Assembly (NCBI RefSeq): GCF_034067285.1
Contig: NZ_CP139286.1
Coordinates: 682,001-746,000, forward strand
From: Acinetobacter pittii
GTDB taxonomy: Bacteria; Pseudomonadota; Gammaproteobacteria; Pseudomonadales; Moraxellaceae
Reading direction: 5' to 3'
DNA: 64,000 nt
In this document: positions 12,253-50,309 of the stretch, piece by piece
Layout of the letters: the number at the start of each line of letters is the position of its first letter
Position numbering within the stretch: the stretch's first letter is position 1
Program-made: the position numbers and the translations under genes
The notes under the pieces: generated by a model
What the model was told of the DNA's origin: nothing
Databases searched by the model: none
The model's input: only the letters and a program-made list of their open reading frames with translations

Positions 12253-12605
12253 TCAGATAGAATTTTTGATATGAGTTGCATTTGAACAGAATAATATCAT
12301 GTTTCTTTAAGGACATTTTAAGATCATTTTGTAGAGTAAGTAAGGGCGAAAAGCTTTATCTATAACAAGAAAAATTTTGGGAGTTCTTAACCAAGTTTTA
12401 TCTTTTTACGATAGTTAACCCAAGTTTGTCATCATGTTGTGATACATTATCGCACTTTAAATAAACTGCCTTTAACTAGGGGCAATAACCACAAACGTTA
12501 GAAATGGTCTGATATTGAACATGTGTTAAGTCTAATTTGAGACTTATCAATTGCGATAAAACTAATTTTAGATCGTTCTAATGATTAACTTTCTTTGAGC
12601 AAGTT
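12253..12605. other. Intergenic region between PaaX-like gene and uppP
   Basis: No gene seen. The region must contain divergent promoters. The only distinct structure is a perfect inverted repeat TAAGTCT-AATTTG-AGACTTA at 12527-12546, about 60 bp before uppP. It is a possible regulatory site or 5' leader hairpin. Confidence 0.4.
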
Positions 12606-13424
12606 ATGGAAAATTTTGAAGTTATAAAAGCACTGTTTTTAGGCTTTGTCGAAGGCTTAACTGAATTTTTACCTATCTCGAGTACAGGCCATTTAATTTT
12701 ATTTGGTCATATTATCGATTTCCATTCAGACGGCGGTCGTGTATTTGAGGTCGTAATCCAGTTAGGTGCTATTTTGGCAGTGTGCTGGTTATACCGACAA
12801 AAAATTATTAACTTGATTAAGGGATTCTTTAGTGGCGATGTAGAATCACGTCATTTTGCGATTAGTGTGCTTATTGCATTCTTCCCAGCAGTCATTATTG
12901 GTGTTTTAGCTGTCGACTTCATTAAGAGTGTTTTATTCAGCCCAATCGTCGTTGCGATTGCTTTGATTGTCGGTGCTCTTATCATTTTCTGGGTTGAATC
13001 TAGACAGTTTGAGCATAAGACACTGGATGCAACTAAAATTACTTTTAAACAAGCGCTTTTAGTAGGCCTTGCTCAGTGTGTGGCCATGATTCCAGGAACT
13101 TCACGTTCAGGTGCAACAATTGTAGGCGGAATGTTTGCTGGCTTGTCACGTAAAGCTGCTACAGAATTCTCTTTCTTCCTTGCAATGCCAACCATGTTGG
13201 GTGCTGCAACTTTTGACTTGATTAAAAATGCTGACGTACTCACCTCAGACAATATGATTAATATTGGGGTAGGTTTCGTTGCTGCATTTATTGCTGCGCT
13301 ATTTGTTGTAAAAGCATTGGTATTATTTGTAGAACGTCATACCTTACGTGTATTTGCTTGGTACCGAATTGTACTCGGTGTAATTATTTTAATTGCAGCC
13401 ATGTTCTTTAATTTATCGGCTTAA
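12606..13424 (+). CDS. uppP: Undecaprenyl-diphosphatase UppP (BacA)
   Basis: Integral membrane phosphatase that recycles undecaprenyl diphosphate to the monophosphate carrier for peptidoglycan and surface polysaccharides; overexpression gives bacitracin resistance. The 272-residue length equals E. coli BacA (273). The two signature motifs are present: the glutamate-rich [17 protein letters not shown] near the N-terminus and [10 protein letters not shown] near residue 160. Seven or eight hydrophobic spans are visible. The gene is monocistronic with a terminator 17 bp after the stop. Confidence 0.96.
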
Positions 13425-27689: not shown

Positions 27690-27722
27690 TTTAAGTCATT
27701 TTTAAGTTTCAATTTCTACATT
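27690..27722 (+). promoter_or_regulatory. PmrA box and -10 of the pmrCAB promoter
   Basis: The direct repeat TTTAAG-TCATT-TTTAAG at 27690-27706 fits the PmrA consensus (two TTTAAG-like half-sites five bases apart). Ten bases further lies the -10-like TACATT (27717-27722). The box ends 48 bp before the pmrC start. Autoregulation by PmrA is established for this operon type. Confidence 0.85.
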
Positions 27723-30117: not shown

Positions 30118-31452
30118 GTGCATTATTCATTAAAAAAACGACTGATTTGGGGCACCTCAGTTTTCAGTGTCATTTTAGGTTGTATATTAATTTTTAGTGC
30201 TTATAAAGTTGCACTTCAAGAAGTCGATGAAATTTTAGATACGCAAATGCGCTATTTAGCTGAACGAACAGCTGAATATCCATTGAAAACGGTAAGCAGT
30301 GAGTTTGATTTTCATAAAACTTATCATGAAGAAGACCTATTTGTAGATATTTGGGCTTATAAAGACCAAGCCCATTTATCTCACCATCTCCATTTATTGG
30401 TTCCACCCGTTACACAAGCAGGCTTTTATTCGCATAAAACCAGTCAAGGTTTAATCCGTACTTATGTTTTGCCATTAAAGGATTATCAAATCCAGATTAG
30501 CCAACAAGAAAAAGTTCGTGAAGCTTTTGCTTGGGAGCTTGCGGGCAGTATGTTTATTCCATATTTGATTATTTTACCTTTTGCGATTTTTGCTTTAGCT
30601 GCAATTATTCGTCGAGGTTTAAAGCCGATTGATGACTTTAAAAATGAACTGTCTCATCGTGACTCAGAAGAGCTGACACCTATTGAAGTTGTGGATTATC
30701 CTCAAGAACTGTTACCCACAATTGATGAAATGAACCGTCTTTTTGAGCGTATTTCTAAAGCACAAAATGAACAGAAACAGTTTATTGCAGATGCTGCTCA
30801 TGAACTTCGAACTCCTGTGACTGCTTTAAATTTACAGACCAAGATTTTAATCAGTCAGTTTCCTGAGCATGAATCGCTGCAAAATTTGAGTAAAGGATTA
30901 GCACGTATTCAGCATTTAGTGACGCAGCTTTTAGCGCTGGCTAAGCAGGATGTCTCTTTAAGTGTGATTGAACCGACAAAAGCTTTTCAACTCAATGATG
31001 TCGCTTTAAATTGTGTTGAGCAGCTTGTTAATCTGGCTATGCAAAAAGAAATTGACTTGGGGTTTGTTCGTAACGAACCAATTGAAATGCATAGTGTCGA
31101 GCCAACAGTTCATTCAATTATTTTTAACTTAATTGATAACGCTATCAAATATACGCCTCATGAAGGGATGATTAATATTTCAGTCTTTACTGCTACAGAT
31201 GGCGATGCGTGTATACAAATTGAAGATAGCGGTGCAGGGATTGACCCAGAGCATTATGATAAAGTACTAAAACGTTTTTATCGTGTACATCACCACCTTG
31301 AGGTTGGCAGTGGTTTGGGACTATCGATTGTAGATCGAGCGACTCAGCGCTTAGGTGGGACTCTGACACTAGACAGAAGCTTAGAGCTTGGTGGACTTTC
31401 TGTTTTGGTTAAACTTCCTAAAGTTCTCCATATTCACGAAACAAGAACTTGA
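30118..31452 (+). CDS. pmrB: Sensor histidine kinase PmrB
   Basis: Membrane histidine kinase (444 residues) that senses cations and acid pH and phosphorylates PmrA. The start is GTG at 30118. Spans lie near residues 10-29 and 142-162, enclosing a periplasmic domain. The phospho-acceptor is His228 in AAHELRTPVT, and the ATPase domain has NLIDNAIKYTPH and SGLGLSIV. Residues I recall as resistance hot spots (Thr13, Pro170, Ala227, Pro233, Thr235) are the usual ones. Several other residues differ from A. baumannii PmrB as I remember it (for example Tyr54, Glu62). The stop is 1 bp from the converging PAP2 stop. Confidence 0.96.
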   Translation: MHYSLKKRLIWGTSVFSVILGCILIFSAYKVALQEVDEILDTQMRYLAERTAEYPLKTVSSEFDFHKTYHEEDLFVDIWAYKDQAHLSHHLHLLVPPVTQAGFYSHKTSQGLIRTYVLPLKDYQIQISQQEKVREAFAWELAGSMFIPYLIILPFAIFALAAIIRRGLKPIDDFKNELSHRDSEELTPIEVVDYPQELLPTIDEMNRLFERISKAQNEQKQFIADAAHELRTPVTALNLQTKILISQFPEHESLQNLSKGLARIQHLVTQLLALAKQDVSLSVIEPTKAFQLNDVALNCVEQLVNLAMQKEIDLGFVRNEPIEMHSVEPTVHSIIFNLIDNAIKYTPHEGMINISVFTATDGDACIQIEDSGAGIDPEHYDKVLKRFYRVHHHLEVGSGLGLSIVDRATQRLGGTLTLDRSLELGGLSVLVKLPKVLHIHETRT

Positions 31453-31453
31453 G

Positions 31454-32161
31454 TTAGGTAAGTTCTTGTTTGATTCGTTTCTCAAATTCAAAGCGGTGAA
31501 TACAAATTGCATAGAATAAGATATTCACTGCCCCAACCACCCAACCTGTCCATAAATTATGACTCAGGAAATGTGCTCCACGCATCATTTGTCCCCAACC
31601 CATCATAAAGCCCAAAATAATGCCTGCAATGAGATAAAAATAGGCACGTTTAGGTTGTTCAAGACGATAAACAAAATAACCTGTCATTAAAATAAAACCA
31701 GCGCTTGCATGGCCGCCTGGAAAGCAATGCCCATGCTTAGCAGTGAAGTCCCATACATAACTTAAAGCAGTAGGATGAACCATATTCCAAGGGCACGCAT
31801 GAGCCGATTGTGATTTTAAGAGGCCAACTATACCGCTACCAATCATACTCACAAAAAACATATAACCATATTGCCAGCGATAAAGCTTTAATTTTTCAAT
31901 TTTAAATGATGCAAGCCATAGACCGAAAAAGATGACGTAAATGGTAGTAATGATTTGTTTAACAATTTCATGATTCAGTCTTTCAAGATACCAATTGTCC
32001 CGATTGAAAAAATGACCTGTTGAATCAATCCAAGGGTGGATGAAATACATGTCAATTTTTCCACCCACAGGAAAAACGATCAAAAGCAGGAAAAAACTGA
32101 AAAAAAGAAGAATGATATTAAGCTGAAAAAATTGTTTTTGTTGATTCATGCCATGCAACAT
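31454..32161 (-). CDS. PAP2-family lipid phosphatase convergent with pmrB
   Basis: A 235-residue membrane phosphatase of the PAP2 superfamily, with six hydrophobic spans. The active-site motifs are visible but slightly unusual: KSQSAHACPW in place of KxxxxxxRP, CFPGGHASAGF in place of PSGH, and RGAHFLSHNLWTG in place of SRxxxxxHxxxD. This form resembles LpxE/LpxF-like lipid phosphatases and related sugar-phosphate phosphatases. Start choices are ATG 32161 or ATG 32149. Its promoter carries a perfect PmrA box, so it is a candidate PmrA-regulated lipid A or undecaprenyl-phosphate phosphatase. The substrate is inferred only. Confidence 0.82.
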   Translation of the reverse strand: MLHGMNQQKQFFQLNIILLFFSFFLLLIVFPVGGKIDMYFIHPWIDSTGHFFNRDNWYLERLNHEIVKQIITTIYVIFFGLWLASFKIEKLKLYRWQYGYMFFVSMIGSGIVGLLKSQSAHACPWNMVHPTALSYVWDFTAKHGHCFPGGHASAGFILMTGYFVYRLEQPKRAYFYLIAGIILGFMMGWGQMMRGAHFLSHNLWTGWVVGAVNILFYAICIHRFEFEKRIKQELT

Positions 32162-32183
32162 CAATTAAATCGTGTGTAAAGGC

Positions 32184-32216
32184 ATTACATAAAATTAAGC
32201 TTAAATTGCTCTTAAA
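32184..32216 (-). promoter_or_regulatory. PmrA box and -10 in front of the PAP2 gene
   Basis: Reading on the minus strand, TTTAAG-AGCAA-TTTAAG (32216 to 32200) is followed after exactly ten bases by -10-like TGTAAT (32189 to 32184). Half-sites, five-base spacing, orientation and distance to the -10 are the same as at pmrC. The PAP2 ATG is 39 bp beyond the box. Confidence 0.75.
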
Positions 32217-32252: not shown

Positions 32253-32282
32253 TAAAAAAAGCGACGAGAAGTATCGTCGCTT
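32253..32282 (-). terminator. Terminator of amt
   Basis: AGCGACGA and TCGTCGCT pair around six bases. Reading leftwards a long T-run (TTTTTTTATTTTTT) follows. Confidence 0.88.
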
Positions 32283-49682: not shown

Positions 49683-50309
49683 CTAAAAATATATTTGTTT
49701 TCTACTTAACCTACTTTGTGTTTGTAATAACCAGAGCCAAAGCAGTGCAATCCAAATAAAACCTATGCCCCAACCGGCGAGTACATCTGTTGGAAAATGA
49801 ACTCCAGCATATATTCTTGAAAGCCCCATGCAGATAAACCAAAAACAGGAGATCAAAATGATATAAGGAGAGTTAATGTTGGGCCTATGGCATAACATTA
49901 ACATTGCCAGACAAGCTAGTGTTGATGCATAAACACTATGTGCACTTGGGAACGATGCACCATAACTTTCGACAATATGATATGCCTGTGAAGGTCTAGG
50001 ACGGTCAACACACCACTTGAGCAGCCAACCCATGGTGATACTGCCAAGAACCCCCACGCTAATGAAAATAACAGTAATATATTTTTTATACCATGCTTGA
50101 TATACACATACCAGAAAGGATAAAAAACATACAAAAGGCATACCGCCTATACGTGCTAAAAAGATCGTAATAGAGTTAAGATAATCTGAACGATTTTCAC
50201 TCAATATTTGAACGGTGAGAAGATCCAAAGATTGAAGTCTCGGCACAAAAAGACCAAGAACACCTAATCCTAAAAAAATACAACCAATAAAAAGCAATAT
50301 ATAGGGCAT
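49683..50309 (-). CDS. PAP2-family phosphatase upstream of adeIJK
   Basis: A 208-residue membrane phosphatase with six spans. The classical PAP2 signature is intact: KWCVDRPRP (KxxxxxxRP), SFPSAHS (PSGH-like) and SRIYAGVHFPTDVLAGW (SRxxxxxHxxxD). It is most like undecaprenyl-diphosphate or phosphatidylglycerophosphate phosphatases of the PgpB/BcrC type. AAGG lies seven bases before the ATG. It ends 24 bp before adeI in the same direction and is preceded by a promoter with a strong palindrome, so it probably heads a PAP2-adeI-adeJ-adeK transcript. Confidence 0.88.
   Translation of the reverse strand: MPYILLFIGCIFLGLGVLGLFVPRLQSLDLLTVQILSENRSDYLNSITIFLARIGGMPFVCFLSFLVCVYQAWYKKYITVIFISVGVLGSITMGWLLKWCVDRPRPSQAYHIVESYGASFPSAHSVYASTLACLAMLMLCHRPNINSPYIILISCFWFICMGLSRIYAGVHFPTDVLAGWGIGFIWIALLWLWLLQTQSRLSRKQIYF

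What the first reader, a model, noticed from the sequence alone, without database searches (positions are those of the whole stretch)
31454..32216. A PAP2 lipid phosphatase next to pmrCAB carries its own perfect PmrA box
Seen directly: TTTAAG-N5-TTTAAG precedes pmrC (27690-27706), and the same direct repeat, in transcription orientation, precedes the convergent PAP2 gene (32216 to 32200). Both are followed after exactly ten bases by a -10-like hexamer (TACATT, TGTAAT), and the start codon is 39-48 bp downstream. PmrA activation of pmrC through such repeats is established. Inference: this phosphatase, with variant active-site motifs (PGGH, RGAHFLSH), is a second PmrA target and could dephosphorylate lipid A or recycle undecaprenyl phosphate alongside phosphoethanolamine addition.
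Basis: partly seen in the sequence, partly recalled or inferred. Interest (0 to 1): 0.75.

Follow-up and report, generated by a model that had tools for sequence, protein, structure and literature searches.

The report
PmrA-box PAP2 phosphatase beside Acinetobacter pmrCAB
In Acinetobacter, the switch that turns on the polymyxin-shielding enzyme PmrC has a matching, evolutionarily conserved docking site in front of a neighbouring lipid phosphatase gene and, in a number of species, in front of a lipid kinase gene, which suggests that all three are turned on together.

Summary
A perfect TTTAAG-N5-TTTAAG box lies before pmrC (27690-27706) and before the convergent PAP2 gene (32216-32200, minus), each followed at exactly 10 bp by a -10-like hexamer. 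The motif is published for A. baumannii pmrC and naxD (PMC10927774). The regulatory inference holds up in comparison. Of 115 distinct Acinetobacter PAP2 promoter regions, 49 have a perfect box and 40 one mismatch; with the motif read backwards the figures are 0 and 5. In 82 of 89 stand-alone regions with at most two mismatches, AAT falls at the fixed -10 position. The box also precedes the lipid kinase gene dgkA: as first gene of a dgkA-PAP2 operon in 19 of the 115 regions, and as a stand-alone gene in 12 of 15 genomes of the close group. The dgkA-PAP2/pmrBAC module also sits on Acinetobacter plasmids. The altered catalytic motifs are near-invariant: a conserved, divergent PAP2 subfamily of untested substrate. 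Control of PAP2 and dgkA genes by PmrA or ColR is known in E. coli and Pseudomonas, so this is a new member of a known kind. No binding or PmrA-dependence data for this gene were seen.

The parts
27690..27706 (+). Perfect PmrA box upstream of pmrC; -10-like TACATT at 27717-27722
   Evidence: same motif published for A. baumannii pmrC (PMC10927774)
27755..29404 (+). pmrC, phosphoethanolamine-lipid A transferase
   Evidence: NF028537 704.2 bits, cut-off 500; the only match of this family found in the genome
29419..30093 (+). pmrA, OmpR-family response regulator
   Evidence: Pfam Response_reg and Trans_reg_C; named by synteny, since the NCBIfam PmrA equivalog cut-off is not reached (206 of 330 bits)
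30118..31452 (+). pmrB, sensor histidine kinase
   Evidence: Pfam HisKA and HATPase_c; named by synteny
31439..31471 (+). Terminator-like hairpin between the convergent pmrB and PAP2 genes
31454..32149 (-). PAP2 lipid phosphatase gene, 231 aa from ATG 32149 (alternative ATG at 32161, TTG at 32164)
   Evidence: Pfam PAP2 43.2 bits, cut-off 27.2; relatives
32184..32189 (-). -10-like hexamer TGTAAT, 10 bases after the box
   Evidence: AAT at this position in 82 of 89 stand-alone regions with at most two mismatches
32200..32216 (-). Perfect PmrA box of the PAP2 gene
32259..32282 (-). Terminator-like hairpin after amt, just before the PAP2 promoter
12306..12322 (+). Third perfect box, 283 bases before uppP/bacA (12606-13424); restricted to a subset of close relatives

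Best explanation
The 31454-32149 gene is an accessory lipid phosphatase of the PmrA-controlled phosphoethanolamine pathway. Phosphorylated PmrA is inferred to bind the two direct half-sites near -35 and to recruit RNA polymerase to the -10 ten bases downstream, so that PAP2 is made together with PmrC and, in most of the close group, DgkA. PmrC moves phosphoethanolamine from phosphatidylethanolamine to lipid A and leaves diacylglycerol, which DgkA re-phosphorylates (established chemistry; role of DgkA discussed in PMC7559476). I infer that PAP2, a membrane phosphatase with a presumed periplasm-facing site, removes phosphate from a membrane lipid whose level changes in, or blocks, this traffic. 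My ranking of substrates: phosphatidic acid or another glycerolipid phosphate (0.35), lipid A 1-diphosphate or phosphate (0.3), undecaprenyl pyrophosphate (0.25), none (0.1). Shown here: box, spacing, conservation, synteny, family, motif conservation. Inferred: PmrA binding, induction, substrate.
For: The box matches the motif tested by EMSA and ITC for A. baumannii PmrA (PMC10927774, passages). Over 115 distinct PAP2 promoter regions the best box has 0 mismatches in 49, 1 in 40, 2 in 19, 3 in 5, 4 in 2; the backward motif has 0 in none, 1 in 5, 2 in 14, 3 in 39, 4 in 52, 5 in 5. Controls on other genes of the same loci, at most one mismatch: amt 0 of 29, pmrB 0 of 93, pmrA 1 of 95; pmrC 81 of 89. 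AAT at the -10 position in 82 of 89. PAP2 and pmrC box mismatches rise together over 91 loci (Spearman 0.45, 0 of 2000 shuffles as high; relatedness not corrected). PAP2 is next to and convergent with pmrB in 110 of 115. A. baumannii has the perfect PAP2 box. dgkA: 19 operon promoters with 17 perfect and 2 one-mismatch boxes; stand-alone box 44 bases before the start plus TATAAT in 12 of 15. dgkA transcript rises with pmrC in two colistin-resistant clinical strains with pmrB changes (39 to 179 and 67 to 741; PMC6330354). The module is on plasmids with both boxes perfect in the two examined.
Against: No PmrA binding, start site or PmrA-dependent transcript for this PAP2 gene was seen. In PMC6330354 the seven transcripts raised in both resistant strains include pmrC and dgkA but no PAP2. 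The 33 raised genes of PMC4872528 name no PAP2; that list does not name pmrC either and holds several hypothetical proteins. 7 of 115 PAP2 regions have 3 or 4 mismatches. A. baylyi lost the PAP2 box (best 3 mismatches) although it keeps a perfect box 202 bases before pmrA; no pmrC was found in its locus. The dgkA box is missing or poor in 3 of 15 of the close group, and only 15 of 29 distinct dgkA promoters of a wider set have at most one mismatch. The usual PAP2 catalytic residues are replaced, so catalysis is not assured. PA phosphatase activity would run against DgkA.
Confidence: 0.75

Rival explanations
1. The box is a real regulator site, but the PAP2 product is a lipid A phosphatase of the LpxE/LpxF kind that takes phosphate off lipid A and lowers surface charge directly.
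For: The best NCBIfam match is 'PAP2 family lipid A phosphatase'; weak fold match to Aquifex LpxE (rank 8, E 0.52); pap2 genes beside mcr are annotated this way (PMC10285318).
Against: 46.9 bits against a cut-off of 275. PMC7559476 says this role could be ruled out for the mcr-1-linked protein, because it gave no such phenotype without mcr-1.
Confidence: 0.3
2. PAP2 is an undecaprenyl-pyrophosphate phosphatase, induced to keep carrier-lipid recycling going, as E. coli YbjG is under PmrAB.
For: E. coli PmrAB raises ybjG, a PAP2-family undecaprenyl-pyrophosphatase (PMC7559476). A perfect box also lies before uppP/bacA in this genome.
Against: The uppP box is perfect in 10 of 30 uppP regions read, all among the closest relatives, and broken in others. 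Where the usual motif has Asp this protein appears to have His (read by eye), and the mcr-1-linked PAP2, which mismatches the catalytic Asp, gave no bacitracin resistance.
Confidence: 0.25
3. The box is used in vivo by another OmpR-family regulator (for example a QseB-like protein), or PAP2 is effectively constitutive, and PmrA control is incidental.
For: The NCBIfam QseB model scores almost as high as PmrA on the window regulator (199 and 206 bits, both below cut-off). PAP2 is absent from the common induced set of PMC6330354.
Against: The box varies in step with the pmrC box, and PAP2 is next to and convergent with pmrB in 110 of 115 loci.
Confidence: 0.12
4. The box is a chance match.
For: About three perfect boxes are expected by chance in the whole genome, and some of the seven perfect sites have no well-placed gene.
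Against: At most two mismatches in 108 of 115 regions with fixed spacing, against controls.
Confidence: 0.03

Closest known systems
PmrAB regulon of E. coli (eptA, dgkA, ybjG)
   Same: PmrAB is stated to control a phosphoethanolamine transferase, diacylglycerol kinase and a PAP2-family phosphatase (PMC7559476, Discussion read in full)
   Different: Acinetobacter PAP2 has altered catalytic motifs; here PAP2 adjoins pmrCAB, with dgkA before it in 19 of 115 regions
ColRS regulon of Pseudomonas putida (PP0900 PAP2, PP1636 dgkA)
   Same: A two-component regulator activates a PAP2 and a dgkA gene (PMC2689224, passages)
   Different: Different regulator and binding consensus
mcr-1/hpap2 and mcr-3/dgkA cassettes; mcr-7.1 near a pap2-dgkA operon
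   Same: Phosphoethanolamine transferase linked to PAP2 and/or DgkA; the mcr-linked PAP2 also mismatches the catalytic Asp (PMC7559476, PMC10285318)
   Different: Only distant similarity (32 bits to PAP2_near_MCR1, cut-off 475)
A. baumannii PmrA targets pmrC, naxD, eptA
   Same: Same box sequence for pmrC and naxD (PMC10927774); PmrA sites at pmrCAB, eptA and naxD in PMC12330716
   Different: PAP2 and dgkA are not named as PmrA-box genes in the passages read; no YdjC-family (naxD-type) gene was found in this genome

Membership tests
PmrA regulon of Acinetobacter | Direct repeat TTTAAG-N5-TTTAAG in the promoter | tested here: met
   at most one mismatch in 89 of 115 regions
PmrA regulon of Acinetobacter | Box at a fixed distance from a -10 element | tested here: met
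   10-base spacer in the window; 82 of 89 regions
PmrA regulon of Acinetobacter | PmrA binds the site | not testable with these tools
   needs a binding assay
PmrA regulon of Acinetobacter | Transcript depends on PmrA | not testable with these tools
   The published 21-gene Pmr list (PMC5340874) is in a figure and table that were not available
PAP2 superfamily | Pfam PF01569 over its cut-off | tested here: met
   43.2 bits, cut-off 27.2
PAP2 superfamily | Membrane PAP2 fold | tested here: inconclusive
   Model mean pLDDT 81; best PDB match is a B. subtilis PAP2-type phosphatase, probability 0.99 but E 0.16
PAP2 superfamily | Canonical motifs KX6RP, PSGH, SRX5HX3D (recalled) | tested here: not met
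   KX6CP, PGGH and QMMRGAHFLSH instead; K112, C119, P120, P144-H147, R190, H193 and H197 each kept in at least 114 of 115 homologues. The three other PAP2 proteins of the genome look closer to the usual pattern (by eye)
NCBIfam NF028538 PAP2_lipid_A | Score over 275 bits | tested here: not met
   46.9 bits
NCBIfam NF028536 PAP2_near_MCR1 | Score over 475 bits | tested here: not met
   32 bits

The most novel reading that the evidence does not exclude
In Acinetobacter, PmrA commands a complete lipid by-product module: PmrC transfers phosphoethanolamine, DgkA disposes of the diacylglycerol, and a PAP2 phosphatase with a rebuilt active site (motif Asp replaced by His, motif Arg by Cys) acts on a lipid phosphate peculiar to this pathway. 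The module is one locus in some species, moves on plasmids, and in the A. baumannii group the regulon also includes a small RNA and a 116-residue orphan protein.
Probability: 0.35. Interest if true: 0.65.

Novelty: new member of a known kind. Interest (0 to 1): 0.45.

Why it matters
PmrAB is a main route to colistin resistance in Acinetobacter, yet the PmrA-box genes named in the papers read are pmrC, naxD and eptA. If PAP2 and DgkA are induced with PmrC, the cost and extent of lipid A modification may depend on lipid recycling, which is a testable weakness. A conserved PAP2 subfamily tied to phosphoethanolamine transfer would also be a clean model for the debated role of pap2 beside mcr-1.

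Tried and rejected
Third box before uppP as evidence for undecaprenyl recycling: rejected as general evidence. It is perfect in 10 of 30 uppP regions read, all among close relatives, and broken in others, while a promoter-like block nearer the gene is conserved.

naxD link: no YdjC-family gene was found in this genome (25 of 149 genomes have one), so galactosamine addition was not pursued.

Other perfect boxes of the genome: 1567084 has no gene in the right place; 2744793 is about 206 bases before a 66-residue ORF; 2649543 precedes a META-domain-like lipoprotein gene (label by eye) with a weak -10; 2015803 precedes a conserved 116-aa gene.

Solved-structure sequence search, PHROGs and PADLOC gave no match. 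Foldseek gave only weak E-values. A second PAP2 gene in the window (49683-50309) was not pursued.

A faulty control: the amt rows with 0 or 1 mismatch (5 of 35), and some pmrB rows, were indexing errors at locus ends that read the PAP2 box itself. The control was rerun with those rows left out; only its figures are used, except for the operon count, which one search gave separately.

Papers: PMC7559476 outline, passages and the whole Discussion; PMC10927774, PMC12330716, PMC5340874, PMC5319971, PMC4872528, PMC6330354, PMC12691633, PMC2689224, PMC10285318, PMC5757984, PMC5660220 passages only; all others search listing only. No listing, abstract start or passage that I saw names this PAP2 gene as a PmrA target. 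The 21-gene Pmr list of PMC5340874 (Fig. 3C, Table S7) could not be seen and may contain it.

Rows dropped: of 131 PAP2 loci, 16 with identical upstream DNA were merged. Of 120 genomes with a PAP2 match, 12 low-scoring or fragmentary ones were not fetched. For dgkA and uppP only the 30 loci returned were read, of 127 and 148 genomes with a match. Of 30 loci of the 116-aa protein, 2 were not read at the right place.

Full report
What is there. The window lies in an Acinetobacter genome of 3,688,740 bases. Its same-species relative G007 has a contig of 3,836,826 bases, the same length as A. pittii ANC 4050 NZ_KB976987.1, so A. pittii is the likely species (inference). The order is pmrC, pmrA, pmrB on the plus strand, then a convergent PAP2 gene, then amt on the same strand as PAP2. 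A terminator-like hairpin follows amt just before the PAP2 box.

Chance. The window has three perfect boxes where 0.05 are expected, but the genome has seven where about three are expected. The motif count alone is therefore not proof. A pattern that includes the -10 hexamer gives 32 places in the genome at up to one mismatch, against 15 for the backward pattern; pmrC, the 2015803 gene and a site beside dgkA match without mismatch, PAP2 and dgkA itself with one.

Conservation. The PAP2 gene was found in 120 of 149 Acinetobacter genomes and in 21 named loci. I read 131 loci and kept 115 distinct upstream regions; 12 of the 120 genomes, low-scoring or fragmentary, were not fetched. Mismatches of the best box: 0 in 49, 1 in 40, 2 in 19, 3 in 5, 4 in 2. 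The backward motif on the same DNA: 0 in none, 1 in 5, 2 in 14, 3 in 39, 4 in 52, 5 in 5. Control genes of the same loci, at most one mismatch: amt 0 of 29, pmrB 0 of 93, pmrA 1 of 95 (A. baylyi); pmrC itself 81 of 89, 58 of them perfect. A first version of this control was spoilt by indexing errors and is replaced. In the A. calcoaceticus-baumannii group all 17 distinct sequences keep the 12 box bases, while 38 of the 40 columns before the box vary. In 82 of 89 stand-alone regions with at most two mismatches, AAT lies at the -10 position. A. baumannii itself, read from NZ_CP077849.1, has the perfect box, the 10-base spacer and TGTAAT. PAP2 is next to and convergent with pmrB in 110 of 115 loci; 3 had no pmrB match and 2 another arrangement.

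Covariation. Over the 91 loci where both could be read, mismatches of the PAP2 and pmrC boxes rise together (Spearman 0.45; 0 of 2000 shuffles as high), but relatedness of the species is not removed. Of the 7 regions with three or four mismatches, three have a pmrC box with two or three mismatches, three (A. baylyi among them) lie in loci where no pmrC was found, and one locus was too short to tell. One further long locus without pmrC has a two-mismatch PAP2 box. A. baylyi keeps a perfect box 202 bases before pmrA, so there the box at PAP2 has gone while PmrA and a site for it remain; this fits a PAP2 that matters only with PmrC, or simply shows that PAP2 control is dispensable.

dgkA. In 19 of the 115 regions dgkA lies directly before PAP2 and the box lies before dgkA: 17 perfect, 2 with one mismatch. 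Where dgkA stands alone, as here (genome 838648-838953, minus), a box TTTAATAATTTTTTAAG with TATAAT ten bases on lies 44 bases before the start; 12 of 15 genomes of the close group (own genome included) keep this arrangement with one mismatch and 3 do not. In a wider set of 29 distinct dgkA promoters, some of them operon type, 8 are perfect, 7 have one mismatch and 14 have two to five. In two colistin-resistant clinical strains with pmrB changes the dgkA transcript rose from 39 to 179 and from 67 to 741, alongside pmrC (PMC6330354). PAP2 is not among the seven common transcripts listed there, which counts against a strong effect on PAP2 or reflects the threshold used.

Module. On the two plasmids examined (A. 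variabilis NZ_CP104652.1, A. radioresistens pAR2) the unit dgkA-PAP2 convergent with pmrB-pmrA-pmrC is complete, with perfect boxes before dgkA and pmrC. A PAP2-dgkA pair with a phosphoethanolamine transferase some 4 kb away is on a record labelled Klebsiella variicola, and a PAP2 next to an LTA-synthase-family gene and a two-component system is on a P. aeruginosa plasmid.

The protein. It is over the Pfam PAP2 cut-off but below both specific NCBI models. In 115 homologues Lys112, Cys119 and Pro120 are kept in 114, Pro144-Gly-Gly-His147 and Arg190 in all, His193 and His197 in 114. The other three PAP2 proteins of the genome look closer to the usual pattern, with the motif Arg and Asp (by eye; the canonical pattern is recalled). 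The change is therefore a conserved feature, not decay. The predicted model (mean pLDDT 81, weakest around the PGGH loop) matches PAP2 enzymes best but with poor E-values.

Mechanism and novelty. I conclude that PmrA very probably activates this gene and that it works as an accessory lipid phosphatase of the phosphoethanolamine pathway; the substrate is open. PmrAB control of dgkA and ybjG in E. coli and ColR control of PAP2 and dgkA in Pseudomonas make this a new member of a known kind. PMC10285318 already noted one PmrAB-like operon next to a pap2 gene. A mucin study lists A1S_2749, annotated as PAP2, as lowered about threefold in mucin, so the gene, if it is the same one (by its number next to A1S_2752 pmrC), is expressed.

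Noticed in passing
L083/L282: genome 838532-838640 (+), outside the window: Candidate small RNA: PmrA-like box, 10-base spacer, TATATT, about 75 bases with a 5' hairpin and a terminator, between the groL terminator and the 3' end of dgkA. Found in 15 of 149 genomes; box with one mismatch in 12 and two in 3, the -10 being TAAAAT or TAAACT in 4 of the 15; no Rfam family reached its gathering score. No transcript data.
   Followed up: partly
L297: genome 2015397-2015744 (-), outside the window: A 116-residue protein without a Pfam match has a perfect box 58 bases upstream; of 30 loci read, 26 perfect, 2 with one mismatch, 2 not read at the right place. Candidate PmrA target of unknown function.
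   Followed up: partly
L278 (NZ_CP104652.1) and L281 (NZ_CP038024.1, pAR2): Complete dgkA-PAP2/pmrBAC modules on Acinetobacter plasmids, with insertion-sequence genes nearby; pAR2 is typed conjugative.
   Followed up: partly
12306-12322: Perfect box 283 bases before uppP/bacA, kept only in part of the closest relatives.
   Followed up: yes
L041, upstream of pmrA (A. baylyi): A perfect box 202 bases before pmrA although no pmrC was found in the locus and the PAP2 box is degraded.
   Followed up: no
49683-50309: A second PAP2-family gene, with more usual motifs, in the same window.
   Followed up: no
L104: genome 2917967-2917998 (+), outside the window: Box-like site with a good -10 (one mismatch) before a membrane-protein gene that looks like DUF2062 (my label, not tested).
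   Followed up: no
NZ_CP077849.1, NZ_CP064203.1, NZ_CP104448.1 in PLSDB: Records of 3.7-4.1 Mb filed as A. baumannii plasmids are chromosome-sized and hold the PAP2 gene; pmrCAB beside it was seen in the one fetched.
   Followed up: no
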